Assembly: GCA_022478985.1 (NCBI GenBank)
Contig: JAKSZP010009257.1
Coordinates: forward strand, 179,264 to 243,263
Direction: 5' to 3'
Origin: Massospora cicadina
Lineage: Eukaryota > Entomophthoromycota > Entomophthoromycetes > Entomophthorales > Entomophthoraceae
Length of the DNA stretch: 64,000 bases
Shown here: positions 5,640 through 56,973 of the stretch, piece by piece
Layout of the letters: each line of letters begins with the position of its first letter
Numbering within the stretch: position 1 is the first letter of the stretch
Notes under the pieces: model-generated
Database searches by the model: none
The model's input: the letters and a program-made list of their open reading frames with translations, nothing else
Told to the model about the DNA's origin: nothing
Made by a program: the position numbers and the translations under genes

Positions 5640-6190
5640 AATATATAGGTTCTTTTTTATGCACTTTTCTTTAACTCACTGTCTGTCTGTCCGTAATCGA
5701 ATCTTGCAATTGATTTTTAACTACCTTCTAGATTAGCTAGAGGCTTTTAAATTTGTCACATTTATGTATCTCTGATGACAATACAACAATCAATCAAAAA
5801 AATAAAATTCTCGTGTTCAAAATAAAAAGTTATGTAATAAGTGAAAATCCTATATATTTTCGAGATAGTCGGTATATAGTTACGGCTGAGCAGTTAGAAT
5901 TCAGTTGATTTGATATTTTAAATGGTTTTAAGTGTTTAGTGGTCATTTGGGTAATTAGCAAATCAATCTTTTTTTAAAAAAACTCCATACTTTTTTTCAA
6001 AAATTTAAAAGGGATTAGCAAATTAATCTAAATCAAAGCTTTGAATCAAAAGTCCAATCGATTTTAAAAATACCTCCTCTGGCATATTCGGCTCGACTTT
6101 TGGCTCTAAACTTAAATTTTATAAAAGTTCAGTTGTTCAAATCCTGGCGTAATCACTTTTATCTATAACTAGCGGAGTTACCCGTGCTTC
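5640..6190 (-). repeat. repeat R copy 1 with tRNA-like region
   Basis: This is the reverse complement of the R copy formed by 8160-8260 plus 16309-16500. The plus-strand sequence here contains GCATATTCGGCTCGAC (A-box-like) and GTTGTTCAAATCCTGGC (B-box-like), the latter able to form a 5-bp T-arm stem, so R may derive from a tRNA-type SINE head. It also carries a CTGTCTGTCTGTCC tract (5680-5694). It was itself hit by a tiny LINE-A insertion at 5970-6013. The family cannot be named. Confidence 0.6.
5970..6013 (-). mobile_element. ultra-short 5'-truncated LINE-A insertion (44 bp)
   Basis: The insert matches the last ~43 bp of LINE-A: a T-run, AAACTCCATACTTT, then AAATTTAAAAGGG (compare 8261-8303). 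It is bracketed by ATTAGCAAATCAATCT (5954-5969) and ATTAGCAAATTAATCT (6014-6029), a 16-bp TSD with one mismatch. The allied R copy at 16350-16385 lacks the insert. This shows LINE-A-type machinery acted in trans or on severely truncated products. Confidence 0.82.
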
Positions 6191-7345: not shown

Positions 7346-8260
7346 AGCTAAAATAATTAGATTAAAAATAACCAATCACCAACCGCTTCGTAACCAAAAC
7401 TAAATGTATCGAAACAACCAAAATCACCAACCACTTACCAAAACCAATTAAATTATCGAATCAACCAATCACTAACTTCTTTATTAAAACCGTTAAGCTT
7501 AATCAACCCAAAACCACCAACCGCTCGACAAAACCATTTAAACTATCAATCAACCAAATATCAAACTTCTCAGCCGTAACAATATACCGATTTCCATTAA
7601 AAACATATAAGATTTTAACTTGTTACATATAAAACTTTTTATTTTACTATGAAAATTAAAAATCGGGCTTCGAGGTGCACACGGACCCCCTCCCGTCCAC
7701 CTATAGCCAAATTTTCAGAGCTCTACATGCTCTAGTTTTGGCTGGGCATCGCGCACACACACACACACACATTTGCTTTTATATATATAGATAAGTGTCT
7801 GAAATAGAGCTTGTAAGATTTGATTACAGACAGACAGAATTGACAGTGAGTTTAAGAAAATTGTATAAAAAATGACCACTAACCACTTAACAAAACCATT
7901 TAAAATATCAAATCAACTAAATATCTAACTGCTCAGCCGTAACTATATACTGACTACCATCAAAAATATATAGGATTTTTACTTGATACATATAAAACTT
8001 TTTTTGAACATGAAAATTAAAATTTTTGATGGATTATTGTATTGTCATTGAAGATACATAAGTGTGCCAAATTTAAGAATTTTTTATTGACAATAAGTGT
8101 CTGAAATAGAGCTTGTAAGATTTAATTACAGACAGACAGACAGACAGAATTGACAGTGAGTTTAAGAAAAGGGTATAAAAAGTGATTATGCCAGGATTTG
8201 AACAACTGACCTTTTATAGAGTTGAAGTTTAGAGCCAAAAGCTGAGCTGATTATGCTAGA
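7346..8260 (+). repeat. R-type repeat cluster, left half of the copy split by LINE-A
   Basis: 7346-7650 is minisatellite plus the R core (CATATAAAACTTTTTATTTTA). 7665-7800 has an (AC)n run and TTTTATATATATAGATAAG. 7800-7870 and 8095-8175 are near-identical direct copies around AAGTGTCTGAAATAGAGC and a (CAGA)n run. 8160-8260 is the tRNA-like part of R (minus strand GTTCAAATCCTGG) and continues at 16309 after LINE-A. No gene seen. Confidence 0.6.
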
Positions 8261-8289
8261 TTTTTTTTTTAAAACTCCATACTTTATTA

Positions 8290-9762
8290 AATAAATTTAA
8301 GGGAAAGTAAGAGGGGAGGGCAGAATACAGATGATTTGGCTGAGGGTAAAAAAGACTGGGGATTTGGGCTGCTAGAGTTCTAGCACCTCTGACCATTGCT
8401 GATTGGCAATTGCCATTGCTAGCCACAGTTCTAGCAGCAGCAGGCTTACAGGCCATACTATTCTCAGATGATTAGTAGCTTCATCATGTGCAATGAGCGA
8501 TCCAGCAGGGAAAGCCAAACATGTGGCCTTATAACACCTGGGGATTATGCACAAGAATTTTGAGATCTGGTGGAGCTGATTGGAGATAATCCAAATGGTC
8601 TTCAATACCAAACCTCTGTGATGGGGGTGCTCGTTGCTCATAACCTTGGCAATGAGCACACAGTGAATTACCCATACACAATAATGGTAAATGAAGGCTC
8701 ATAGTTGGATCAGAGCCATTCTCAGGGTTTTTGTAAAGAACAGGTCCTGCAATGGATGTATACCTGGAGGTGCAAATGATTGCCTGATAGGATGTATCAC
8801 ATTGTGGACCAGTATTTTTTGAACATGGTGCATTCATAATAGCAATGTGCTATGTCTGCTTCTGGTTCAGTGCATATGGGGCATTCTTTGTGCTGGTAAT
8901 CTGGCCCTGCTGTGCTTGCCCAATTTGAATGCCCAATTAAGGATCTGCCATGTTACTGACTGCTGTTTGGCTGTAACCAAGTGGGAGTTCAGGCCCAAAA
9001 TCAACTCCTTCATCAGGTAGTTGGTGTCATGGCCTTTGGTAGTCCAGTCATTAAGGATTTGTGGGTGGGTGGGCAGATTGCACCCCAGTTTTGGGAGCAG
9101 ATCCCCATATTCTATCAGCATCAATTTGTACCTAATTCTGATTGACTTGGTTATATATTCATTGGCAATTCAGTTATGTTCCTCCCAGCTTGTTGCAGTA
9201 ATCATTGTGGAATTATATGCTTTGACATCCCTTTGAATTTGGTCAGCCTCTCAGTCTGATTTTTTGAATGACCACCCACCCTGGTGCATGGCCCAATTGC
9301 AGAGTCACCAGTAGTGTGGGGCTCCTTTTTGTGAGGTTATCTTTGGGTGGTTCACCATCCATTCATATAACAATTGGGGGGAGACTGGCTCTTGGAGGCC
9401 TTGAGCCCTTGCCCAGTTCACACCCCATGCTAGAGTCAGGCAGCATGTGCATCTGTGTTAGCTTCAGAAATGACTTCCCCCATATGCACCTGGGCATGAG
9501 ATTCAAAGTCCAGTAGGCCCATGCCTCCTTCATTCTTTGGTTTTGACAGGGCTTCCAGTGGAATTGGTGCCACCTTCACCTTGAACCACAGGAAAGTTTG
9601 GAGCATTGACCTGATTTTCTTCTCTAGGTTTGGGCTCATTGGCAGCACATGAGCAACATACCATAGCTTTGAGAAGATGAAGACATTTATTGCCTGCACT
9701 TTCTCCTTGAGGCATAGTCTGGCACTTTTCCAGCATGACATTTGGAATGATAAGCTTGTCAA
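8290..9762 (-). pseudogene. LINE-A ORF2 C-terminal part: thumb and zinc motif
   Basis: 9762-9436 encodes the thumb-like segment after the RT core, with FIFSKLWYVAHVLP and the GGMGLLDFESHA motif typical of LINE ORF2 proteins. 9124-8867 continues it. A C-terminal zinc motif is encoded at 8883-8830: ECPIC, then TEPEADIAH, then CYYEC, matching the zf-RVT pattern of cysteine pairs and histidine. At least three frames are used, so frameshifts have accumulated. Positions 8837-8290 continue with further broken frames to the 3' UTR. The zinc motif in this family is thought to help bind template RNA or target DNA. Confidence 0.8.
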
Positions 9763-9822
9763 TACTTCTTGTTTGGTCTCCAGTACAGCTGGTCCCTTGT
9801 CATTGAAGAGTATCCTGAGGTA

Positions 9823-10836
9823 TCAGACTGTCTGGGAGCTCATAATCAGTGTTGTGTCAGTTGGCAGGCTGAAGTTTGGGTTGCTGACCCTCATCACTGA
9901 GGTTTTTGCCAAATTTATTTTTGCATTTGATGCAAGCTGGTAAAGGTTTAATAGATCCTCAGTGCCCTGGAGGTCAGTTGAGGAGCTTATTCCTACAACT
10001 GTATCATCCACAAATGCTAGCATCTTCAGTGGCATTTGGTTAGGGTGGACTAAACCCCAAAGCTTTGTGTCTGCTGCTGCCAGTAGAATGTTAGCTGCAA
10101 AGTTGAAGAGTATCAGTGACATGGGGTCTCCTTGGTGGAGACCTTGCCCAACAGAGATTTTGTTGGTTGTGCCATCTGTGACCATAACCTTCATTACCAG
10201 ACCTGAGTATAGCATCATTATCCATGCCCAAAATGTGTCAGGGATACTGACTGCCTTCAGTGCCTCATGTAGGAATGACCACGCTACTTGGTCATATGCC
10301 TTTTCCATGTTGAGGAACATAAGGTATCCTTGTTTGATGCCCCTCATATCCTGGAGTATGCTCTGGACTGAACCTATGCTGTCCCATATACTACAGCCTT
10401 TAATGAAACTGTGTTGGGCCCTATGGAGCGTGCGTGGTGCTGTTGCCATCAGCCAATTAGATAGTATGCATGTGAGCAGTTTATAATTGGCATTTGATAG
10501 TGCAATTGGGTGCCAGTTCTGAAGTTGGCATTTGAGGCCTTTTTTGTACAGAAGTACAATTTGGGTCTCATGTCCTCCCAGAACTTGTTTGCCATGGGTC
10601 AAACAGTGGTTAAAGAGGGCTTTGAGCTCTGGCATGATGCGGTCTCAGAATATGCTGTATATTTCTGCACACATATTGTTGGGGCCTGGTGCTTTCATTC
10701 TTGGTGACTCCTTTAGTGCCCTCTTAACTTCATCAATAGAGATTTTGGCAGATAGCTTGGTGACGTCTTCCAGCGTACAGCCACCCAGTGCCAGCTTGGC
10801 CAGGTCAATAAGGGTTTTTGTCACCAATTTGCTCAT
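9823..10836 (-). pseudogene. LINE-A ORF2 reverse transcriptase
   Basis: 10635-9823 encodes 270 residues of the RT core; 10836-10645 supplies the preceding PGPNN segment in another frame. Visible motifs: NWHPIALSN, motif A FLNMEKAYDQ, GLHQGDPMS, and motif C AFVDD at residues 208-211, followed by TVV. Motif A normally reads LDxxKAxD; here the first, metal-binding aspartate position is asparagine (residue 109), so the enzyme would be inactive even without the frameshifts. The domain would copy the element's RNA at the nicked target. It is followed by a thumb and zinc motif and preceded by the endonuclease, as in APE-type LINEs. Confidence 0.9.
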
Positions 10837-10869
10837 TTCTTGCTGTCAGAAGAGATTGCCATAAAAAAG

Positions 10870-12120
10870 CTCAACTTCATGCTTGATCATTTCAGGGTCT
10901 GTTGATACTTCCCCATCCGCTGTCTCCACTTCCCATACCCTAGCCTTAGTTCAGATTTCCTTGAGGTGTTTAAGGCCCTCTTTGGTCATCATCCCCACTA
11001 AGCTCTGATATCAGTAAGTTGCATTGGTCCATCTCTCTGAGTCTTGTTTCATCATTATAGCCCAATATTTTTTGTGTGTTGTTCAGTACTCGCTCCACCA
11101 GTCCTTGCTGTCCTGGCGGGTGAGCCTCAGGCTTTCTAATTTAGACTTCAGTTGCTTCATGGTGGCTGTTCACTTGTAGGAGGTCACTTTTTCAAACTTC
11201 ATACTATCATGTTTCATCTTCATTTTGATCTGGGTCCATCTTTCTAGTGGGTCTAGCTCCAGGCGGTTGTCCAGATGCGCTATTAGCTGATCCAGTCCTG
11301 CATCTACCATTTGGCGCCAATCCCCATTCCTCAATGTGGCTGGTGCCAATTGCCACTCATGGTTCCTCAGAGGTTCATCAAGGTCAATCTCCACCCAGAT
11401 GACCATGTGGTCACTTTCAGCATTTATGCTAACCTTGCTGTTGGATGTCATCAGCCTGAGGTCTGATGATATGAGGATGTAGTCTAACTGTGATCCTGAC
11501 AGTGGGGATCCAGCGGCATCATATGTCCACCATGTTAGATTGGCTGGGTCATCATCCTCTTCATCAATCATTAGGCACATCCCCAATTTAACTAGGTAAT
11601 TGAGCATCTTGTCAGCTTTACTGTTGGGGCGTTCTCTCATTGGTATGTATCCTGACTCACATTTGTCCAGCAGTTCAGGTCGCCTGCTATTATGGTCATC
11701 ACTTTGGATGGCACTTCCACTAAGAAATCCCAAAAAATATGGTTTTTGTGGAGCTTTGGTGGGGTGTAGACTGCTACCACCCATATGCTCCTGCCAGTTT
11801 CTCTGTTTGTAGCTGTTGCTATCAAGATCCTACTGGCGTGAGTTTCTTCCACAAATTCCAGGTCTATTTTCTTGTCCATTGTGACTATTGCCACGTGGTC
11901 CATCCATAGGGCTTGGTAGCCTATCTGGTGGGACCATGGATGGTTTTTTTGTCATGCAGTTTGAGCTCAGCACCATTTCTTTTTGGTTACCAGCTTGTGT
12001 TTCTGAAATAAAAATTAGGTCAATATTATTATTAGTTTTTAAGTGGTGCATTTTCCTCCTCCTCATTTGTATGCTCACCATCCCCCAAGCATTTGTAGTC
12101 ACTATCCTCATTTCCAGCTG
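10870..12120 (-). pseudogene. LINE-A ORF2 APE-type endonuclease
   Basis: The N-terminus is at 12111 with MRIVTTNAWG, then FISETQ (catalytic Glu) in the segment to 11830. 11903-11637 holds VVAVYTPP and IIAGDLNCW (Asp/Asn motif). 11784-11170 holds SQLDYILIS and ESDHMVIWVEI, the Ser-Asp-His end motif. All the usual endonuclease/exonuclease/phosphatase signatures are present in order, though split over three frames. The enzyme nicks target DNA to prime reverse transcription. The linker to the RT at 11170-10840 is more decayed. The protein is an orthodox member of its family apart from the breaks. Confidence 0.9.
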
Positions 12121-12445
12121 CCCAACCCATGGGTATGAGGTTTAGCATTGTCTGGGTTGTGAATTGAGTCATGTACAGAGGTCAGGTTGGTCATTGGTGG
12201 TGGTGTCAATGGTTGGTGGGGTGCAATATTTGGTTTTTGGGGTCAGTTGGTTGGGACTGGGATTATGTTCCTGGGCATCCTGTGCACTGGGAATTTGGTC
12301 ACCATCCCCATCTCCCTGTCAATGGTTAATGGGGATGGTTTTATGATTGGGTCTGGGTGCCCCTTGTTTTCTTTGGGTGGACTGGCAGATTTGCCCTCAT
12401 CCATCAGCTGGATTTGCACCCCTTCATTTGATTTATTGGCAGAAC

Positions 12446-13722
12446 TCATTTTTTAGTCAGCAATTGCCCAGCCAATTTTGTCAATCTTGACTTTCCTGCA
12501 AATTTTTCTCCAGTCACCTCAGGCTCATTTGCCAATGACTTCCAATTCATTTTTTTATTCCCTTTCATCTTGTCAGGCTTCAATTTTGACTTGTTGGAAT
12601 CCTGTGGCCACCCATGCTTGGAAGACTTCTTTGGGTTTGCCTTCTGCCATCTCTCCTCCTCCCAGACCATCCATTCCACTTGGGTTGGACGTTTCTCTGC
12701 TGGTCCTGGGCTGGTTCCCTCATCCATTGCATAAGATTTGGGGTTCAGATTTATAAATGGTTTGTCATCTGCTTTGGGTCATTTTGCCATTTCCTGTTCC
12801 CATGCCTCTCTGTGTGCCAGGTCTAATTCTTGTCATTGGCATTTCATATCTGCTACCTCCATTAAGTTTTTGTGGATCCATTCTCTGGCTTTTGGGTGGA
12901 GGAAGGTCTTGGTGCCCACTTTGGTAATTCCCCTGATGGGGTCATATTTGTACTCCTGAGTAGTTTTACCTTTATGATGGTGGCATTGAACCATAGTGTG
13001 GCTGGTCTGATAGCAGAACTGGCACACTTGTTTGGCATCCTCCTGTTTGACATACACTACCCTATCAAGGCCTGGGCAGGTGGATGAATCTGGGTAGAGC
13101 AATCTTATTCAGTTTCATCCAGGGGGCCAGTTTGTACAGCGCTTCCACTGTCTGAGGGTGGAGGCACTTCATGATGTAATCTCCACCAGCTTGGCAGAAT
13201 TTGCATGTACTTCCCCATAGTATGACAACCTGGTCCAGATTGCTTCATGCACCCACTCCCATTTGCAGTCAGTGGGGAGGTTCTGGAAGGTAACCCACCT
13301 TGCCGTTTGGTTGGCATATCTGGTCAGCTCCATTTGCAGATAAATCCCCTTGTACTTGATGCCAATTTTGAGGAGCTTCTTGCAGTCCAACTCACCTGGG
13401 ATCACTATATCTATATAGCCCCATTTGGGGACCCAGTGATGATCAAAGTCCCCTCCAGCTAGGACTTCATCTAGTTCCTGGTAAATTGACAGAATTAAAT
13501 TGGACCATTCTTCCTCCTCCACTAGTTGTAGGTGGATTTGGATAGCATCTTTAAGGTATGATTTTGGTGCCTGGCAATCTGTAAAGCCCCCACTGATCAA
13601 TTGATGGATGTATTTGATGTGGCTCCCTGCTCCATTCCAGGTGTTGTCCTCAGTATGCGCCACCGCTGCGCTGTACAATTTTGATTTTGCGCTTGGTTTG
13701 GGTACATTGGTGGGGGTCTTTC
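12446..13722 (-). pseudogene. LINE-A ORF1 C-terminal half: RNA-binding region and CCHC knuckle
   Basis: The longest open stretch, 13825-13169, continues out of the repeat array and includes WVTFQNLPTDCKWEWVHEAI, an RRM-like or gag-like segment of the type seen in plant and fungal LINE ORF1 proteins. 13102-12833 then carries CQFCYQTSHTMVQC, a CX2CX4HX4C zinc knuckle, followed by a lysine-rich stretch. 12727-12446 is a basic and acidic tail (KPDKMKGNKKMN). Such ORF1 proteins coat the element RNA. The segments lie in different frames. The start of ORF2 follows at 12111. Confidence 0.75.
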
Positions 13723-15212
13723 CTTTCAGAATCCAACTTACTGATTCATTGAGGCTGAAACCCCAGCTGAGGAATGCTTTGAGTTGGTGACTGTTGATAC
13801 CATGGCAGTTGATACTTTTAGCCATTTGTGCTCCAATCTCCAGGCTCTGCCACTCTAGGGCATCCGCTGGTGAGAACCCCAGTCAGTACCATTTGAGAGT
13901 GGATTCTGGGCTGCACGTTGGGTGGAGGTATTGTTGGAGGACCTCCAGCGTAATTGAGCTATGCTGACACCAGTCCCTTACAGTAATGCTGTTCCAGCCC
14001 CCATCTGTGAATACCCATGCCATGTCTGCTGGAACCCCCACTTCACACCATTGAAATGCTTCTGAGGGGGTGAAGCCTTTGGTGGCATATGGGGCAGCTA
14101 TCATCAGTTCTGGGAAGGATTGCTTCCAATCCCAGATAGTTTTGATGCAGATCCCCACTTTGAGCCATTCTTGTGCCCAAGTCTGGGGTCATGACCCCTT
14201 TCATCGCTGTTGCTGCCTGTGGTGAGATCTCATGCTCCATCCACAGTTGGGCTGATTGGGGGGTGAACCCCCTGCCACATCCCAGTCTGCAGCCTCAGTG
14301 AGTGTTGAGGCATCACACCAGATTTTCCACTTTGCAATTGGGAATGGGCAGCCTCTGAGGGTTTGTGAATCAGCTTGGTCACCCCCAGTTCTGCCCATTC
14401 ACACACTAGGTCCATACTGGCCCCCGCTCAGAACCAGTATTTCATCTCCATTGGTGTGAATCTGTTGGCAGACCAGTTGATGGCCTCTTCCAGTGACCAA
14501 TCCTGAAAGGGTCCCCATTCCACTGCCTTTTCCTTTGTCCAGCCCGCTTTCATCAGGTCTGATGTGGTGGCAGGTGGAATATGGGTATATGACCAGTGTA
14601 AGGCCTCAGTTGCCTTGAACCCAGCCTGCAATCCATGGTAGTGCTTCCTCTGGGGAGAAGGTAGTGTTGTACCATTCCAGCGCCATGTCCACTGGAATGG
14701 AGTGTCTGGCCCATTTGAGGGCCATAGATGCATTTGGGAAATGTCTAGCATATTCAGCTAAATTTGTTGGGTTGAGGCCTGAGCTCCTGACAGCTTGGGC
14801 ATAATGTGCCATAATGCCCACCTTGTTGTATTCCATCACATTTAATAGGTCAATGCCAGCCTCCATCCAGGCTTTTGCATCCACCAGTTTTAAATCTTTG
14901 TGGATGGTGGCCTCTATCACCTTGTAGTCCATGGGGATTTTCATCCACTCCAGGGCATCTTCAGTTCAAACTCAGGATGCCTTGAATTGTACCACCATAT
15001 TGATTGAGATTTGGGTGTTGAGCCAGCATTTGGCCACTCAGTGCAGAAAATTTATGGTCATGCCATATAGCTGCTATGGCTGGCTTGATTCCTTTAGAGA
15101 CCCACTGAGTCACCATAGAGTATGGAAACTGGAGGGCCTCCCATTGTTTGACCTCATGGGTGGACACACCTTGACATGCTAACATGTCCAACTGGATTGG
15201 TGTAAATTTAAC
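13723..15212 (-). pseudogene. LINE-A ORF1 array of 13-residue G-[FIVW]-[ST]-P-x-x-A-x-x-W repeats
   Basis: Read on the minus strand in up to three frames, the region gives a nearly unbroken register of 13-residue units: GVSTHEVKQWEAL, QFPYSMVTQWVSK, GIKPAIAAIWHDH; later GLNPTNLAEYARH, SIPVDMALEWYNT, TFSPEEALPWIAG; GFTPSEAFQWCEV, GWNSITVRDWCQH; ending GFSPADALEWQSL, GINSHQLKAFLSW, GFSLNESVSWILK. About 38 units of 39 bp fit the length. Each unit looks like a glycine turn, an N-cap (S/T-P) and a short helix with Ala and Trp facing one side, suggesting a helical solenoid. The DNA units are too diverged to look like a satellite. Frame changes near 14990, 14640, 14350, 14260 and 14130 and stops (for example after units at 14430 and 13885) show decay. 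I cannot name a family. Confidence 0.8.
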
Positions 15213-16150
15213 TGGGGCCCTGGCCATTGACTTGACTGCTGTCAGGGTTTTCACCCCTTCCAGTAATACTTTAAGTTTTTTTGCTGATCCCTCTCAGGTG
15301 TCCAATCCCTCAGATTTGGTCCCCAATATAGAGTCACCCCCACTTTGGTTGGTCCTCAATGGATCAGCTTGGTTTGGTGATTGGATATTTGGGATCAGCC
15401 ATTGATACATTGTTGAGCTATGGCCCCCTGTCAGAATGCCTTCATTGGGGATTGCACCTCAATTGCATATTGGGCATTCCACCCAATGAGTTACTCATGC
15501 TACCAAATCAATTTTGGTTGGGGACCATTTGCCCCCCCAACTGGGCTGTTTCAGGATTGGCATCTGACTTGTTCTTCACCCAAATACCCTGAGCTGATTT
15601 GGTAAGTTTCTCCATGTCAGAAGAAAGCTTTTTATTGCTTGACTCCATTGGTTTGAATTGCCAATTTTTGTTATTCAAATCTGAGTCAGTTTCAGATCCT
15701 ACCAATACCTCATCCAGGTTTTTTGCTTTATTGGCAAGAATTTTCTCACCCTGTGAGGCCCCAGTCCCCCTGCTGATTGAGGTTCACTGGGGAATATTCC
15801 TGACTCTGCTGTTCTCAGCATCAGGCCTCACTCCCAGAAGGTTGTGCTTGTCATCTGGGTGTCAGTGGGCATCAATCCTAGGGAGTTGACCCCATCATTT
15901 GTGCTATTTGTTAGGGCTCCATGACCCATTGACATGTTCATTTCATTTTGTTGTCATTTGTGTCACCAGTTCATTACTTGGTGCATACATGGTGGAATGC
16001 CCAGCCCCATTTCTAGTCATGTCAGGGCTTGGGCCAGTGGGAAGGTCAGCAGATGGTTCATCCATCTCAGCGACCTTGGTATTATTCTTAATAAAACTCA
16101 CTATTGGTGTGGGCAAGTCATCCATTTCTATGTGCTGCGCACAGATGGGT
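15213..16150 (-). pseudogene. LINE-A ORF1 N-terminal region
   Basis: Open stretches at 16125-15943 (rich in D, P, T and N, low complexity) and 15705-15508 (KKLSSDMEKLTKSAQ, charged) alternate with stops. A run GVKTLTAVKSMAR just before the repeat array may be the first degenerate unit. No conserved domain is recognised. The likely ORF1 start is near 16125, because a 165-bp leader would then separate it from the 5' end of the element at 16290, but the true start is uncertain. Confidence 0.45.
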
Positions 16151-16308
16151 GGCTAGACTTCCCTACGCTTGGTTGGTTGGCCTTTGTTCACTGCTCTATA
16201 AAATTGCAGTGCATTATGGCAGTTGATTGCTCTCTCAATTCTTGTTCAATTCACTTTTTGTTATAAAAGTGATATTTGTGAGAGAGAAGATGAGCTGATT
16301 ATGCTAGA

Positions 16309-16675
16309 GGAGGTATTTTTAAAATCAATTGGACTTTAGATTCAAAGTCTTGATTTAAATTAACTTACTAATTAGCCAAATGACCACTAACCACTTAACA
16401 AAACCATATAAAATATCAAATCAAACAAATTTAAACTGCTCAGCTGTAACAATATAGCAAATACCATCAAAGTATATATAGGATTTTCACTTGTTACATA
16501 TAAAACTTTTTATTTTACTATTAAAATAATATTTTTTAAAATTCATAAACCTTCTCAGGCATGCACACAACAACTCACCAAAGTTTCATCACAATTGGAT
16601 GAATGGTATAGGAATGCATTCGGGACATACATACACACAGACATTCATTTTTATATATAAGATAGATTTCATACT
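16309..16675 (+). repeat. repeat R copy 2, right half (after LINE-A)
   Basis: Continues the R copy interrupted by LINE-A: GGAGGTATTTTTAAAATC, minisatellite-like CCACTAACCACTTAACAAAACC, then TTGTTACATATAAAACTTTTTATTTTA, and the end ACACACAGACATTCATTTTTATATATAAGATAG. The 18790-19110 block is its inverted relative on the other side of RAD23. Confidence 0.65.
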
Positions 16676-17153: not shown

Positions 17154-18500
17154 ATGCAGGTCCGGGTAAAAGATTTAGGAAATAAAGAGTTTAAGGTTAC
17201 TATCGAACCTAGTGCTACTGTCCTGGAACTTAAGCAAATCATTGGAAAAAAGCTTAATGCTTCAGCAGATGATCAAAAACTCATTTATTCGGGTACTTTG
17301 AAAACATATTTGTTTTTCAAAACTTTATTTTAACAAAAAACAGGCAAAATTCTTTCCAACGACACTACTGTAGAGCAAGCTGGGATTACAGAATCTGGGT
17401 TTGTGGTTTGCATGCTATCTAAGGTATTCACTTTCTGGCTTTGTTGCTTCGTTTTTAGAAGCTAATTTTGTTCAAAAGCCAAAAGCTTCTACAACTACTG
17501 CACCGCGTACACCTGTTCAAAGTGCTCCTGAGCCAGTAAAGGATACCCCTTCAGTTCCTATTTCTCAAGGCCAACCAAAGTCTGTCGAATCAAGTGCACC
17601 TGTCGATCTTAGTGATCCTTCAGCATTAGGTAACTTAGTTTCTATCATAGTTTTCATCTCATTCAGTTACTGGGAGCGAGTATGAGTCAGCGATCAATAA
17701 TTTTCTTGAGATGGGTTTTGAAAAAGAGCAATTGTACAGGCTATGCATGCTGCTTTCAATAACCCAGTTCGGGCGACAGAATACCTTCTCAATGTAATTT
17801 TGGCACGTTTCAATTCTAATATATGTTAGGGTATACCTGATGAGCTAGTTGCCGAAGCAGTCGCACCCTCTTCTGCTCCAGTTGAATCAACAAGATCACC
17901 TACTACTACACCTGCTGCTTCGGAAATAAGTAGTCTCTTTTTTACCTTATATCTGATTGTATTTTAGGCGGAAATTTATTTCAGGCAGCTGCCCAGCAAG
18001 CAGCAGCTCGCCATCAGACTGGAGATATTGATTTCTCAGCTCTTCGCCAGTCCCCCCAGTTTCAGATGATCTTGCCAGGCTATTCAGGAAAATGCCTTAC
18101 TCCTACCTTCGATTTTGAGCTCTCTCGGGGCAGCAAATCCACAACTCCTTCAGGTACCATTTAGTATTTCCTCGGCTAACAGCATTAGCAAATCAGTGCT
18201 AATCCTGACGCTTTTTTGCAGCTTCTGAATGAGTCTGAAGATGAAAGTGCTGGTGCTACTTTAGGATCTGAAGATGGTGGGGAAGGGATTCTTCCAGCTG
18301 GACAACAGTACATTCAAGTCACTCAAGAAGAGAACGAAGCTATTACTCGGGTAGAGATTTGAGCTTTTACTTAAGCTTATACTTTTTAGCTTGAAGCATT
18401 GGGCTTTCCACGGGAGTTGGTGATCCAAGCTTACTTTGCTTGTGACAAAAATGAGCAGCTAGCTGCCAACTATTTGTTTGAACATGGGAATGAGGATTGA
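17154..18500 (+). CDS. rad23: RAD23-type ubiquitin receptor / XPC partner, eight exons, two indels
   Basis: Shuttles ubiquitylated proteins to the proteasome and stabilises the XPC/Rad4 damage sensor in nucleotide excision repair. Exons: 17154-17292, 17344-17423, 17479-17629, 17667-17793, 17830-17929, 17968-18153, 18222-18350, 18390-18500; introns 36-68 bp with GT..AG ends. Domains of the ~340-residue product: N-terminal ubiquitin-like (KLIYSGKIL, residues ~1-75), UBA1 ([10 protein letters not shown], ~126-166), XPC-binding region (~213-262, [10 protein letters not shown] onward), UBA2 ([20 protein letters not shown], ~300-338) and the end EHGNED. Two single-base changes break the frame: one base short near 17731 (inside UBA1) and one extra near 18072 (start of the XPC-binding region). 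The frame between them hits a stop. Either an assembly error or a decaying copy; all splice sites are intact. Confidence 0.9.
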
Positions 18501-45495: not shown

Positions 45496-46894
45496 TTAGT
45501 AACAGGGATGGCACCCCAGAGAAGCAATGCTATCTTCTGTTGCCAGCGGGAACGCCATTATGGGGAGGAGGGGGGAACTTGTAAAGGGGACATAACCACA
45601 ATTGAACATGTGTGGAGGAAGGGGTCCGAGTTGATGAACCAAACTGGGAACCAGGAGGAGACCAACTGATGGCGACGCGGTGGGAGGTACCCAAACATCC
45701 ACGCTTGAAAGTGGTCCACCAAATGGGACCAGAATCTGTGGACAGCTTCTGGGAGGGTGGGGACGGAACCTGCGATGGCATCTAAGACAATTGTGTAAGT
45801 AGGCCACATGGCGATTGCAACTACCAGAGCACGGAGGGAGGGTGGAAGAGGGAAAACCATGGATAGAGAAAACATATCCCTAGACAGACTGAAGGGATGT
45901 GCCTGATCCTGGCAAAGCAGATGTTGAACCTCGCGACATATCGCTTTAGAGGTAGGGCACTTCTCCAGGCGGTGGAACATCGTTCCATACTGGCCACACA
46001 TTACACAGGATGAGTGTAAAGCGTTAGAGCATTCAGCCATATGGTACACCTGCCTCAGACAGCGCCACACATGGGAACGGATATGAGGCAGCAACAGGGG
46101 GTGGTGTTAATATTTCCAAATAGTCTTCTGGGTCTCAAGGGAATAAGGGATGTCCATCATGTCCAGGTAGTCCACCCTGGATAGGACATGGAGCCGTGTG
46201 GGGAACAAGCCATCTTGAATGGGTAGCCCCTGTACCTCTTGTGTGAACTGAGGAGAGGGGCGGCCTCTCTGGGCTGTGTGTCCACAAATACAGATTCTCC
46301 ACTCAGCACTCCGCATGGAGAGGAGGATTCGTTTGAAGTGGGGTTTATTACCGTGAGGACCTGTGGCCGATGGGTGGGAAGCCAGATATTTCATCAAGGA
46401 GTGAGGGTTCAACGGATTGGTAAGGCCCAGGGCGCAGGAGAAGTTGGAGCGGGCCGCGCGGGACCAGTGTTGGGAGGGGAGCATAGGGGTGGTGATGGCC
46501 GCAATACAGGTGCCTAGGATTTTGGCAGCATGGGCTTTAAAGTTGAGCAGGCACATGCCACCATGATGACGAGGGCCAAACATGACCTCAAGCCACACTG
46601 GCAGTGGGCGGCCTGACCAGAGATACCCTTGTAGAAGGGCATACATATATTTGAAAAAACCTGGGGGAAGGCGATGGTGTGGGCTTCAAACCAGACTTTG
46701 GAGAGGAGCATAGAGTTGGCTAGGACAACCCTGCCAGTAAGGGAAGTAGGGTGGGCTCTGAGAGAGGCAATGCGCTTCGTCACATTGTCTAGAATATGAA
46801 TTTTCATTACTGCTGAGGCATACCCGCCTGCCTCCACCCACACGCCCAGATGGCGGACAGGCCCTATGGTAGGGCGTGGCACGAAGGGGAGCAC
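45496..46894 (-). pseudogene. LINE-B ORF2 C-terminal part: thumb and zinc motif
   Basis: 46894-46514 and 46646-46107 encode the segment after the RT (LLSKVWFEAHTIAFP; GGMCLLNFKAHAAK, matching the GGxGLLdf motif of LINEs). 46094-45558 encodes the zinc motif CVMC, GQYGTMFH, RLEKC (46007-45957), the zf-RVT pattern. 45807-45496 is the proline-rich C-terminus in another frame, ending 73 bp before the 3' end. Open segments are long and abut each other, so only a handful of indels separate this from a continuous frame. Confidence 0.82.
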
Positions 46895-47068
46895 AAGTGG
46901 GGCGGTGTGGGGTGAGCAGGGAAGGTGAGAATGTGTGCGAGCAGATGGGTTGGGCTGGGCACTGGTCGCTGGGGCCCAGCAGGTTTAATCCTGACCAAGG
47001 AGAATGATTTCAGTTTTGGAGGCGTTCAGTGCAGCATTATTTACCTGGGAATACTCCTGGATGAGAGC

Positions 47069-47944
47069 TCAAAGCGCGCATGCATATTGATTATTAGACA
47101 CCATGACCACACAATCATCTGCAAACGCCATCATCTTGACTAGGGCTTGGCCTGGTTCATGGACCCCAGTGAGGCAGGCATTCTTGTTTCGAAGTAGTGG
47201 GTCAAGGCTGAAGTTATATAAGATTGGGCTAAGGGGTTCCCCTTGGCGTAGGCCCCTTTGAGGGCGGACTACTTCCGTGAGGGAGCCAGGGCCACGCACT
47301 GCCATTGTTGCAGATTCCGTAAGCATCATCACACAGCTGATGAAGCGAGGGAGTAAGCAGAATTGGCGGAGGCAGGCCCTGAGGTATTTCCAGTTTACTA
47401 TATCATAGGCCTTCTGTTGGTCCAAGAATACTAGTGCCCCAGAGGCTGTGGACTGGCATGCGTTAACCACAGAGTGCACATTGTCCCAAATCAACCTTCT
47501 GGGTATGAAACTGAATTGTTCTGGGGAGATGGTGGCAGAGTCTATAATCCCTAAACGGTTAGCCATGATTTTAGTTAAAATTTTTGTATCCATGTTAGTC
47601 AAAGAAATGGGGCGCCAGTTGGCTAGGTTTAGCTTATACCCTTTCTTGAAGAGTGTGATGGTGAAGGCCTCTTGTCCTCCTGGTAGAAGGCGCGTATCCA
47701 GAAGGCTCTGGTTAAGGGAGGCAAGCAGCAGTGGGGATAGATATATGAAGTACTTCTTATAGAACTCATACAGAATGCCATCAGGGCCTGGGCATTTCCA
47801 ATTTGGTGCACCGCGGACAGCGGACCAGAGTTTGTCTGGAGTAATCAAATTCATTAACTCTGGGTATTGGGAAACAGTGCGGATGTGAGTGCTATCAAGA
47901 AATTTCGCCATTTTGGCTGGCTGAATTGGATCAGATCGGTACAA
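47069..47944 (-). pseudogene. LINE-B ORF2 reverse transcriptase core, uninterrupted
   Basis: A 291-residue open segment covers the RT palm and fingers: CPGPDGILYEFYKKY (51-65), NWRPISLTNMD, motif A VFLDQQKAYDIVNW with its first Asp at residue 175 intact, RGLRQGEPLSPILYNF (230-245) and motif C AFADD (273-277). All key catalytic aspartates are present, unlike LINE-A. The family copies the element RNA at a nicked target. The downstream thumb is in another frame, hence pseudogene, but this is the best preserved LINE domain in the window. Confidence 0.92.
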
Positions 47945-48059
47945 CTCAGATTGATACTTTGTATTTTGATTGCCACTTCAGCCAGCGTATCCATGACAGA
48001 ATCGTCCAACCTCTGCACCTGTGTGTTGGCCACACTCTGGCGCGGTGTGAAGAATTCTC

Positions 48060-49190
48060 TTAAAAAATAAGCGGAGCATGTGCCACTCTCTTTAATGTGT
48101 TTGGCCCTGTACTGAACACAAACCTAATATTTGTGTTGCCTTTCAAGCGCGTTGAGGTGGGCGTCTGCTTCTTCCCACTTCTGGCCCCAAGCAGGGTTGT
48201 AGCCCATGGCTGAGATGTTGGACTCCAGGTGATAACTCTGCCAGAGCGCGCAAGATGATGGCTGATGTAGCTCGTGAGCATTAGGAGGAGAGGTGGCAAG
48301 TGTGGCGGATGGTATCCGCTTTGAAGGCTGACCATGTGGAAATTGGGTCCGCACAAAATGGTGTAATAAACTCTTATGCTGAAGTTGCTAATTTCACCCA
48401 TGTGGAAAATCCTGGTGACACGAGTTCAGGTGGGCGGAGTTTGCACCAATGTGGAGCCCTAGCCACTGTGACGGGTAAGTGGTAGGATATCAAGACCAGC
48501 CAGTGATTGGAGAAATCAATTTTTGATGTGTGGAAGTGGGAAATATGGGATTGAAATTTCACTGGTGCGAGGATAAGGTCAATGCAGGACATGGACCTTA
48601 ATTGGCCATTGTGGATGTGGGGGCGCGTCATTTTCTTGAGCAGCGGAGCTTGCTGCAGCAGCATGTTGGACAACCCAAGGGTGGCCTTTAGAACATGAAG
48701 TTCTACATGACCTTGGGGGTGTGGGATGAGGAAGGCCAGCAGTCCGTGGATGTGTTTAACCAACAGTTCATGTTGCCAACTATGAAAGGGTTAGGGGGTA
48801 ACGGAAGGGATTTGACTGATGAGAAAAATTCCTGACGCTCTCATGCACAGGTTGGGGCATAAATGTTGACAATAGTATGCACCACGTTAGCCCACAAAAA
48901 TGTGACAATGAGGACTCAGCCATTGAGGAAGAATTCAGATGATAAAAATTTAAAAAATTGTTTTTCTGAATAAGCACCCCACAGTGCTTAGACCAAAAGG
49001 AAAGGGAAGGGAGGAGCATGGTTTTCCAAGCATCCTTGGAACCTCGTGGACAGTGGGACTCCTGGATGGCCAGAATGTCAACGGGTAAATTTTTTAGTAA
49101 AAACTCAGTTTCCTAGCCTAGGACGATGAGGCCTTGAGTCTGGCAATGTTCAACGTCCCTAAAGTGAAGGCTTCCCCCATTGCACCTTAG
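48060..49190 (-). pseudogene. LINE-B ORF2 APE-type endonuclease
   Basis: On the minus strand from about 49180: TLNIARLKA, then DILAIQESHCPRG (catalytic Glu) near 49090-49050, CGVLIQKN and the ivxiYxPxx-like LLSTFMPQPVH in 49019-48780, and SCIDLILAP plus FSNHWLVLIS in 48763-48374, where the usual Ser-Asp-His end motif reads Ser-Asn-His. 48401-48060 continues into the linker before the RT. Motifs are in the normal order over several frames. The Asp-to-Asn change in the last motif would likely impair nicking. Confidence 0.8.
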
Positions 49191-54863: not shown

Positions 54864-55712
54864 TCAGCTGGTCAAATTTGCTAGTAAGACATCAATCTCT
54901 CCATTCCCTGGTATAAGTATTCCAAGCACCATACTAGGTTCCATTTGAGAATGATGCCACAGGGATACAAACTTCCCATATATTCCTTCTGGAATATACA
55001 GTGTGGTCCCAGTCCTCATAACCAGTTGATGACCTGGAGCTATTGTCGCATCCTTATTCACACATAGAGGTATTCCTCAATTTTCATTTATGGCAGTTAG
55101 CATGGGGTGGCTTCAATTTCCCCACTGAATATATCTTACTGTTATTATCCCATCGGCTTAAGATATATTGATAAAAGTTCTACAACATCTTGTGGGCTTT
55201 GTATTGTTGTGAGAGTAATAAATTGGAAGTGATTGGCCCAATATTGTCAAGACGTTTTCTTATAAATCACATGAGATCCCATAGGTCCTTAAAAAACTAG
55301 TTCCAATTAATATGTCATAATTGGCATTTGAAAGCACTATAGCGGGTGCGGCTACTACCAAAGCTCCAAATAGCAGTGGTAAAGCGCTGTAAGCTCCTTC
55401 ACTCTTAGTGCTGTTAAGGCCTGCAGTCCCATATTCTTGATGATGGTTAATGTCCGGAGCTATTTTCAATTTCTTAACCAGCTTTGTGGAAACAATGTTT
55501 ACAGGTGCTCCACTATCAACAATAGCTACAACTCTGATCTTGTTGACCATAATATCCACATAAGTGCACTCAGAGTAGTAAGAATCAATAGATTTTACTA
55601 AGTGAATATGGGAAGAATCCAGGGAGTTAAGAGTGTGCTTCAGAGTATTTCCAATACTGGGACATTCATTGATGAATGTGTCGATTGGCAGAGCTATATT
55701 GACCCCCTTCAA
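54864..55712 (-). pseudogene. Gypsy-A aspartic protease and linker
   Basis: 55712-55260 encodes 150 residues with VVAIVDSGAPVNIVSTKLV (catalytic DSG) and the C-terminal YDILIGTSFL hallmark. It would cleave the Gag-Pol polyprotein. 55061-54864 (TLYIPEGIYGKF, VLLANLTS) is the linker typical between protease and RT in Gypsy elements. Segment 55712-55260 is open throughout. Confidence 0.88.
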
Positions 55713-56039
55713 GCTTGGGGTATCTGATGCATTGCTTGGCCCTTTGGCTGGATATTCTCAAGTATTTGTTGCACATAGGGTTTAGCAACTACTTCAGAGG
55801 CTTCAGGTATGACAACCTTACTCTGGGAGCGAGTTACCGCATGTACATCTAAAGAATCTTCATTTGATACTAAAATAGAATCATTTTAATTGATAAACAA
55901 GGCCCCATGGGCAGCGTTTTCTTGTCAATCGGGGTGGGACTGGTGTCTTAGGCACAATAGAGCGTCCCGCATCTATTGTGCTTGTTCTTTTATCTCCTCC
56001 CGCAAGGTATTGGGAAGGACTACATTGACATTTCGCTGA

Positions 56040-56100
56040 TGTCATTGGGAAGCAAAGTGACCTTTACAATTGCAATTAAAGCAAGTAAGCTCACTCATTG
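56040..56100 (-). pseudogene. Gypsy-A nucleocapsid zinc knuckle, last Cys replaced by stop
   Basis: On the minus strand the region reads CFNCNCKGHFASQ then TGA where the final Cys of CX2CX4HX4C is expected. It lies between capsid and protease, as usual. A single base (TGC or TGT to TGA) explains the loss. Confidence 0.75.
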
Positions 56101-56385
56101 GGCGTGGGGCTCTCATATTTGAGTTTTGCTCATTTTTTACAGGCGGATTACTGTCAATATTCTAATTGGTTTCAAAGGGCTTTACAGCGAAGGCAGGAGG
56201 TCCTTATCTGTACCCAGTATTAGGAGGGCCATAATTTTTTGAGCACCTGCACAAATAATCAACCAATTCAGATGTTGCAAGGTTTTGCACGAAAGCAGGC
56301 AATAAAGTGTTTGACAAATTTGGGTAAGGTTCTACTGCATGTTCTAGTGCAATCTTAGCATCAAAATCGACCATAGCCCATGCGC

Positions 56386-56928
56386 CTAGGAGAACTTGAG
56401 CTTGCGATAGAATTGATCTGAAAATTTGTCAATTGCTTCATCTTTCTTATTGTGAATGTTCATAAACTTAGATTTTCTGGTTGACATTCGTTCTGGACCT
56501 CCAAATTCATAAAGCACAGCATCTTTGACTTTGGCATATGTTGGGTTTTCATTAGTGTGAAGCATAATTAACTCAATGCTCCACTCATCCAAACAGTTGA
56601 TCATAGTGGCTGGTTTGTTATGGTCGCTGGCCCCATACATGGCCATTTCAAAGCGTTTGACAAATGTGGTAATACTTCCCTTCTTGTCAAAAGCAGGCAG
56701 GTTTGCTGGTTTATAATTATCACTTCCCCATTCCTGGTTATCACGATTACTTCTTTGTTGACTAGAGCCAGGCGTACTAGGGCGCTGAGGCATCATATCC
56801 CAGTTTGAGGTGATAGGGCTGGCCAAAGCAACCATATTACTAGGCATTTGTTGACGTGACCCAGAATCCATTTCAGTAGCTATTTCTGAAGTTTCATCAT
56901 CATAATATTCAGAAAAATTTCCAGTCAA
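56386..56928 (-). pseudogene. Gypsy-A gag capsid region
   Basis: 180 residues; a Ser/Pro/Gln-rich lead (residues 1-70) precedes a capsid-like domain from LPAFDKKGSITTFVKRFEM, with NCLDEW and AVLYEFGG, ending DKFSDQFYRKLKFS. It aligns along its length with Gypsy-C gag at 63632-64000 (FEMTMFGYAD, MNCLITD, AIMLEFG, FVDHFYQG), so both belong to one lineage. Gag forms the particle. It continues toward the knuckle at 56100 through decayed sequence. Confidence 0.82.
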
Positions 56929-56973
56929 GTGGTTTGTAGCACACTGACAACGCCTGTCATCCAGAGCTCAAAT

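What the first reader, a model, noticed from the sequence alone, without database searches (positions are those of the whole stretch)
13723..15212. LINE ORF1 with a long array of 13-residue helical repeats
About 38 units of 13 residues (turn, S/T-P cap, Ala and Trp: e.g. GFTPSEAFQWCEV, TFSPEEALPWIAG, GFSPADALEWQSL) can be followed across frame breaks, directly upstream of the RNA-binding region and CCHC knuckle of LINE-A ORF1. DNA units are diverged, so the period was kept at protein level before decay. I know of no LINE ORF1 described with such a solenoid-like module. It could bind nucleic acid or host protein, act as a spacer, or be a captured host domain. Function is inference.
Basis: partly seen in the sequence, partly recalled or inferred. 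Interest (0 to 1): 0.88.

Follow-up and report, generated by a model that had tools for sequence, protein, structure and literature searches.

The report
LINE retrotransposon protein with short-helix solenoid
A very abundant jumping gene in a giant, probably fungal genome carries in its first protein a long, evolutionarily conserved row of about 38 tiny helical repeats, a building block that I could not find described for this kind of element, and it lands mostly at one preferred spot in another repeat.

Summary
Confirmed and strengthened. On the minus strand, 15209-13724, about 38 units of about 13 residues (G-hydrophobic-S/T-P-x-x-A-x-x-W-x-x-x; some weak) precede, in frame in sister copies, the conserved region and CCHC knuckle of ORF1 of an APE-type, L1-like LINE (window 16290-8261; 18-bp target duplication). 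The 20 sister copies fetched by place all carry the array, with no indel of 12 nt or more in it. A diverged subfamily copy (L036, 74% nt identity) keeps its length and differs from the main family at 15/12/40% of codon positions 1/2/3 in the array, as constrained as the CCHC part; the N-terminus is not. A 42%-identical relative of unknown host (P0001) is colinear over ten units. AlphaFold2 gives ten helices for ten units (pLDDT 83.5). No Pfam or NCBIfam family, no significant PDB match. So this is a functional, probably solenoid domain of ORF1p, not decay, chance or an inserted gene. Extra finding: 17 of 19 copies with a readable 5' junction sit at the same site of a dispersed repeat; empty sites abound. 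What the array binds is unknown; a protein-binding scaffold seems likeliest, possibly serving target choice. New variant of a known kind.

The parts
8261..16290 (-). whole LINE insertion (about 8.0 kb), 5' end at 16290, oligo(A) 3' end at 8261
   Evidence: ends defined by copies with other flanks and by the target-site duplication
16291..16308 (-). target-site duplication, 5' copy (18 bp)
8243..8260 (-). target-site duplication, 3' copy (18 bp)
15213..16152 (-). ORF1 N-terminal part, fast-evolving, no significant codon-position bias
13724..15209 (-). array of about 38 units of about 13 residues (one predicted helix each, ten units modelled)
13025..13723 (-). ORF1 region between array and knuckle (presumed RNA-binding), conserved, no known domain
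12983..13024 (-). CCHC zinc knuckle CX2CX4HX4C
   Evidence: motif read in translation
11170..12141 (-). ORF2 endonuclease region (APE type), frame-broken in this copy
   Evidence: Exo_endo_phos_2 in sister copies L010 (E 3.2e-6) and L019 (1.2e-5); only Exo_endo_phos E 0.087 in the window's own piece; ORFs
9823..10644 (-). ORF2 reverse transcriptase
   Evidence: RVT_1 E 8.1e-26; best PDB relatives include LINE-1 ORF2 protein, E 1.7e-18
8283..8288 (-). AATAAA before the oligo(A) end

Best explanation
SHOWN: the array is a protein-coding domain of ORF1 of an APE-type, L1-like LINE. It was kept by purifying selection while the family was active, at constant length (about 38 units of about 13 residues). 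PREDICTED: each unit is one 7-9-residue helix capped by S/T-P plus a short turn, with position 7 (often Ala) and position 10 (often Trp) as core; together they make a long single-helix-per-unit solenoid between a fast-evolving N-terminus and the CCHC region. INFERRED: ORF1p binds the LINE RNA by its C-terminal part; the near-neutral to acidic solenoid is a rigid protein-protein surface that assembles ORF1p and/or docks the RNP on a host chromatin protein at the preferred target, where the ORF2 endonuclease nicks and primes reverse transcription. My odds: about 0.95 for the domain being real and functional, 0.85 for a helical solenoid, 0.45 for protein binding as its main job.
For: Period. In-frame junction of array to the downstream part in sister copies. 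No indel of 12 nt or more in the array in 21 copies and none of 6 nt or more in L036. Codon-position differences, L036 versus the family (17 copies, sites with at least 85% agreement): array 46/306, 36/311, 114/286 (p 1.4e-18); RBD+CCHC 45/260, 29/274, 125/257 (p 1.3e-25); N-term 79/231, 82/223, 90/208 (p 0.13). Internal branches of a 31-copy tree, non-CpG: array 44/38/108 by position against 144/123/173 on terminal branches (p 3.6e-5); at codon level 340 nonsynonymous to 219 synonymous on internal, 856 to 396 on terminal branches (p 0.0018). P0001, 42% identical over 76 residues to L028 and 48 of 125 gapless to L016, keeps Trp10 in 9 of 9 units and Ala7 in 7 of 10; 150 of 150 scored places (of 2,849 candidates) in the genome align to it nearly end to end. 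AlphaFold2: 10 helices starting 13,13,13,14,13,13,13,13,12 residues apart, pLDDT 83.5, pTM 0.67. Charge of three array stretches K+R/D+E 25/26, 21/34, 11/13, which does not suggest a nonspecific nucleic-acid binder.
Against: A first structure job on 246 residues with near-identical sequences gave pLDDT 41; the good model rests on five rows, three of which are other stretches of the same kind of array, and it covers ten units only. Foldseek found no PDB or viral match at E <= 0.001, so the fold is unchecked. Ten of 19 held-out units fall below the profile's 99.9% level. The supposed core position 7 changed more than average on internal branches (30 nonsynonymous changes; mean 26), unlike positions 2 and 10 (16 and 9). 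CpG sites show no significant third-position excess, nor do the 21 closest copies alone show a clear one. All copies that I read are broken, and some frame breaks may be assembly errors. Nothing but charge tells protein from nucleic-acid binding.
Confidence: 0.55

Rival explanations
1. The solenoid is a modular nucleic-acid reader (as TALE, PUF or mTERF arrays are; recalled) that recognises the LINE RNA or the target DNA by one contact per unit.
For: Fixed array length and strong insertion site preference; unit positions 12, 13, 3 and 5 change most, 10, 1 and 2 least.
Against: Net charge about zero or acidic; the high nonsynonymous to synonymous ratio at position 12 is the same on terminal branches (52/12 and 89/19), so it shows no special selection; BurrH and entries holding MTERF4 appear in the weak structure lists but no better than unrelated proteins.
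Confidence: 0.2
2. The array is mainly a structural spacer or self-assembly module, the counterpart of the coiled coil in L1 ORF1p, multimerising ORF1p around the RNA.
For: It lies upstream of the presumed RNA-binding end, as the coiled coil does in type II ORF1 (PMC4120745, passages); near-neutral, Trp-rich.
Against: A spacer alone would not need conserved unit identity: specific units stay recognisable at 42% identity.
Confidence: 0.3
3. A host gene or other gene was captured once by an ancestor, or the array is a separate gene inserted by chance.
For: A similar 13-residue motif occurs in a bacterial protein (L029).
Against: The 12 loci fetched (of 150 scored places) all match LINE sequence around the array; array inside the target-site duplications and in frame with the knuckle region; no host source was found, but only the best candidates were scored, so a host gene could be hidden behind the LINE copies.
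Confidence: 0.05
4. Chance or translation artefact of a diverged DNA satellite in a dead element.
For: DNA lag 39 is also detectable; every copy read is broken.
Against: Third-position excess and protein-level conservation.
Confidence: 0.01

Closest known systems
APE-type non-LTR retrotransposons, L1-like by RT
   Same: CCHC in ORF1, APE endonuclease and RT in ORF2, AATAAA and oligo(A) end, target-site duplication; RT best matched in PDB by LINE-1 ORF2 protein
   Different: ORF1 carries an array of about 38 short-helix units; strong preference for one site in a dispersed repeat
ORF1 types I-V of Khazina and Weichenrieder (as summarised in PMC4120745, passages)
   Same: nearest to type I (RRM immediately upstream of CCHC)
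   Different: no helical repeat array among the domains named in the passages seen; an RRM could not be shown here
Dictyostelium TRE5-A (PMC5911963, passages)
   Same: APE LINE with strong site preference; its ORF1 protein interacts with the TFIIIB proteins
   Different: TRE5-A ORF1 is a 51-kDa protein of unknown function; here no ORF1 partner is known and the target was not recognised as a tRNA gene
Nitrospinota MAG protein with GFTPEEAKPWKSA repeats (L029:1184-1888)
   Same: six or seven units of the same 13-residue motif, scored by the LINE-trained profile
   Different: bacterial, signal-peptide-like start (by eye), short array; common descent untested; only 1 stretch in genome contigs matched the strict two-unit pattern
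Known alpha-solenoids (TPR, PPR, HEAT, ARM, TALE; recalled)
   Same: helical tandem repeats
   Different: units of 13 residues with one helix, not about 30-40 residues with two or three helices (recalled)

Membership tests
APE-type LINE (non-LTR retrotransposon) | reverse transcriptase | tested here: met
   RVT_1 8.1e-26
APE-type LINE (non-LTR retrotransposon) | APE endonuclease upstream of RT | tested here: met
   Exo_endo_phos_2 at its cut-off in L010 (27.4 bits of 27.4), just under it in L019 (25.6); weak in the window's own broken copy
APE-type LINE (non-LTR retrotransposon) | oligo(A) 3' end and target-site duplication | tested here: met
Type I ORF1 (RRM + CCHC) | CCHC knuckle | tested here: met
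   CX2CX4HX4C at 13024-12983; by motif only, no Pfam zf-CCHC match
Type I ORF1 (RRM + CCHC) | RRM immediately upstream | tested here: inconclusive
Type II (L1) ORF1 | Transposase_22 (coiled coil, RRM, CTD) | tested here: inconclusive
   no Pfam match in the pieces scanned; profile test only
Known alpha-solenoid repeat families | match to a Pfam repeat model | tested here: not met
   no repeat family for five array pieces of the window nor for L011, L016, L028 and P0001, max_evalue 10 though HMMER's filters drop most matches above about 0.1
Known alpha-solenoid repeat families | same fold as a solved structure | tested here: inconclusive
Site-specific LINE | independent insertions at one target sequence | tested here: met
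   17 of 19 readable 5' junctions and 15 of 18 3' junctions, with differing filler bases; flank and LINE distances uncorrelated in 15 copies; empty sites at 40 of 40 scored places. One pair (window, L011) has identical flanks with LINEs 4.1% apart, unexplained
tRNA-gene-targeting LINE (TRE-like) | target is a tRNA gene | tested here: not met
   ARAGORN and Rfam find none at the window copy or in four empty-site loci; A-box and B-box likeness is by eye only

The most novel reading that the evidence does not exclude
A new class of modular short-helix solenoid in a LINE acts as the address reader of a site-specific retrotransposon: ORF1p grips the target repeat, or a protein sitting on it, through its 38 units and so guides very many insertions to one 18-bp site.
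Probability: 0.18. Interest if true: 0.93.

Novelty: new variant of a known kind. Interest (0 to 1): 0.74.

Why it matters
LINE ORF1 proteins are among the least understood parts of very common mobile elements, and the five architectures summarised in the paper seen hold no solenoid. A constant-length array of about 38 one-helix units under as strong constraint as the knuckle region would be a new ORF1 architecture and, if the model holds, a repeat fold with an unusually short helical unit. Together with the strong insertion site preference it makes a testable system for how ORF1p contributes to target choice.

Tried and rejected
Chance or satellite artefact: rejected by codon-position bias. 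Unit-number variation between copies: none seen, except 5'-truncated copies such as L033, whose LINE match starts inside the array at about 15013. Within the 21 closest copies alone the codon-position signal was weak (array, informative non-CpG sites 13/8/13); it appeared with deeper branches. Homolog searches: the ORF 13169-13882 found nothing at E <= 0.01; the array profile found one protein, P0001; repeating with P0001 found only itself; that search needs shared exact words, so absence is weak evidence. Viral contigs: 48 pattern stretches, no relative; plasmids: none. Pfam, NCBIfam: nothing above cut-off; sub-threshold hits such as Enolase_like_N (E 0.0064, 16.3 bits of 25) for P0001, WbqC (E 0.035) for L028 and Decapeptide (E 0.058) for L029. 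PDB by sequence: nothing below E 0.06 for the array. PDB and viral folds: nothing at E <= 0.001. Literature, all in the open-access library only: '13-residue repeat' + retrotransposon 0 papers; at least 3 of ORF1, non-LTR retrotransposon, solenoid, helical repeats 0 papers; five phrases for 13-residue repeats, 4 unrelated papers; ORF1 with tandem repeat and zinc knuckle terms, 2 papers; at least 3 of alpha-solenoid, retrotransposon, ORF1, LINE: 1,132 papers, 10 listed, none of these ten holding 'alpha-solenoid'. Target as a tRNA gene: not supported. A search of the own genome with L036 for still more distant families did not complete.

Full report
1. What was checked. The finding lies on the minus strand. 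The window is G000:C7986:179264-243263 of an assembly of 1.47 Gb in 16,968 contigs. Autocorrelation of the translated minus frames over 13723-15212 gives lags 13, 26, 52 and 39 residues as the four strongest of lags 2-60 (z 7.6, 7.3, 5.7, 5.4); control stretches in the RT region and upstream of the array do not; plus-strand frames show the same lags more weakly, as expected of the reverse complement. In a scan of the 64-kb window the 11 best windows for this period all overlap the array (best 10.5, best elsewhere 4.6). Tandem Repeats Finder does not report it, so the period is kept at protein level. A profile trained on 17 units of one sister copy (L028) scores 9 of 19 held-out full-length units above the 99.9% level of shuffled sequence; 10 fall below, three of them negative. 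The count of 38 is therefore the number of 13-residue steps in register from 15209 to 13724, with some steps weak. Of 36 units with 13 readable residues, 33 have a hydrophobic residue at position 2, 23 Ala at 7, 22 Trp and 28 an aromatic at 10.

2. It belongs to the LINE. Of 2,376 first-look candidates for the 2-kb array region 40 were scored, giving 41 matches of 89-100% identity (one the window itself), 38 of them over nearly the whole query; the others are truncated or split copies. I fetched 20 of the other copies; 20 of 20 carry the array and adjoining ORF1, and in the 21 aligned copies the array has no indel of 12 nt or more. Open stretches in the copies join array units to each other and to the downstream part: L028 246 residues, L016 263 residues, L011 353 residues (units 28-38 plus the region before the knuckle), L010 336 residues (units 35-38 through the CCHC). 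The LINE has an RT (RVT_1, E 8.1e-26; LINE-1 ORF2 protein among the best PDB relatives, E 1.7e-18), an APE endonuclease region, AATAAA plus oligo(A), and an 18-bp target-site duplication at 16308-16291 and 8260-8243. The array lies wholly inside these bounds.

3. It was under selection. The copies now are broken, so selection must be read from older changes. On a tree of 31 copies, non-CpG changes on internal branches in the array fall 44/38/108 on codon positions 1/2/3, on terminal branches 144/123/173 (odds ratio 2.0, p 3.6e-5); the region with the CCHC behaves alike (24/10/71 against 128/95/162, p 2.6e-6); the N-terminal part does not (67/81/90 against 172/216/196, p 0.14); CpG sites show no significant difference in any region. 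At codon level the array has 340 nonsynonymous to 219 synonymous changes on internal and 856 to 396 on terminal branches (p 0.0018); positions 10, 1 and 2 of the unit change least, 12, 13, 3 and 5 most, and position 7 somewhat above the mean. A diverged subfamily copy, L036, is 74% identical in the array with no indel of 6 nt or more and differs from the family at 46 of 306, 36 of 311 and 114 of 286 first, second and third positions in the array (p 1.4e-18), against 45/260, 29/274, 125/257 in the CCHC region and 79/231, 82/223, 90/208 in the N-terminus. An outside relative, P0001 (127 residues, from a 552-base contig of unknown host), is 42% identical over 76 residues to L028 and aligns without gap over 125 residues to L016, with 48 identical; it keeps the odd 14-residue unit, Trp10 in 9 of 9 and Ala7 in 7 of 10 units. 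All 150 scored places of 2,849 candidates align with it, from residue 2-4 to 122-126, at 34-42% identity, many with one or more stops. So the array is old, colinear over the part that can be compared, and protein-coding.

5. Target. The window copy and most sister copies sit at the same sequence, TCTAGCATAATCAGCTCA or close variants: 17 of 19 readable 5' junctions and 15 of 18 readable 3' junctions; exceptions are L015 and L019 at the 5' side, L019, L023 and L028 at the 3' side; L019 has its own 16-bp duplication (15 of 16 matching, by eye) elsewhere. Between target and LINE start the filler bases differ among copies. Among 15 copies the 5' flanks differ by 0-24% (mean 11.8%), the LINE parts by 4-10% (mean 7.2%), and the two sets of distances are not correlated (Spearman -0.15, p 0.12); flanks are closer than LINEs in 46 of 105 pairs. 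This fits independent insertions into repeat copies of all ages better than one composite element that spread. Against simple decay after insertion, the window copy and L011 have identical flanks (302 bases) while their LINEs differ by 4.1%; I cannot explain this pair. The joined flanks match 40 of 40 scored places of 3,762 candidates (62 matches in all) across the junction at 91-97%, and an empty copy lies in the window at 6014-6160. The target region has by eye an A-box, B-box and T-run like those of Pol III genes, but ARAGORN and Rfam call no tRNA.

6. Mechanism, with odds. Shown: a conserved coding domain in a site-preferring APE LINE. Predicted: a one-helix-per-unit solenoid. Inferred: it serves as a protein-binding scaffold in the RNP, for self-assembly or for docking at the target. 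The nearest published precedent that I saw for ORF1 in targeting is TRE5-A, whose ORF1 protein interacts with TFIIIB proteins (PMC5911963, passages read). Rivals are a nucleic-acid reader and a plain multimerisation module.

7. Known kinds. The ORF1 domains named in the passages seen of PMC4120745 are RRM, CCHC, coiled coil, CTD, PHD, esterase and zinc finger/leucine zipper; none is a helical repeat array. Here the CCHC is present by motif, an RRM is unproven. No Pfam or NCBIfam model fits the array. One bacterial protein with the same 13-residue motif was found (L029, a Nitrospinota MAG), itself without a Pfam family above cut-off, so the motif exists outside LINEs; descent or convergence is open.

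8. Organism. Not named by the tools. Size and contig number are near those of Massospora cicadina (1,488.88 Mb, 19,694 scaffolds, PMC9584336, first of three parts of the text read), and M. cicadina is reported to have 6.3% L1 LINEs (PMC11105155, passages). That assembly rests largely on nanopore reads; if this is it, some frame breaks may be sequencing errors. This is a guess.

9. Changes made on checking.

Noticed in passing
window 16291-16308 and 8243-8260; L009-L028: The LINE is strongly site-preferring: same 18-bp target in 17 of 19 readable 5' junctions, the target being a site in an abundant dispersed repeat of which empty copies abound.
   Followed up: yes
window 16310-16640 and L011: Window copy and L011 have identical 5' flanks (0 of 302 differences) although their LINE parts differ by 4.1%; unexplained.
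   Followed up: partly
window 6014-6160 (+): An unoccupied copy of the target repeat (88% across the junction) lies near the LINE's 3' side, inverted to it.
   Followed up: partly
window 15213-16152 (-) and L036: ORF1 N-terminal part evolves without codon-position bias while array and CCHC region are constrained, like the rapidly evolving N-terminal portion of L1 ORF1p (abstract of PMC5940361 in a search listing).
   Followed up: partly
L018:9089-9733 (+): Flank of one LINE copy holds a Pif1 helicase 2B domain (E 5e-18), perhaps a Helitron-like neighbour.
   Followed up: no
window 45558-48790 (-): A second LINE with RVT_1 (E 6e-26) of another family; no 13-residue period near it among the best windows.
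   Followed up: no
window 55260-56967 (-): LTR-retrotransposon remains: aspartyl protease (E 1.6e-9) and weak gag match.
   Followed up: no
window 17154-18000 (+): A RAD23-like gene (ubiquitin-like and UBA parts by eye) with short introns starts beside the LINE insertion; identity recalled, not searched.
   Followed up: no
L029:1184-1888: Bacterial protein with signal-peptide-like start and six or seven units of the same 13-residue motif, no Pfam family above cut-off: perhaps an uncatalogued repeat type.
   Followed up: partly
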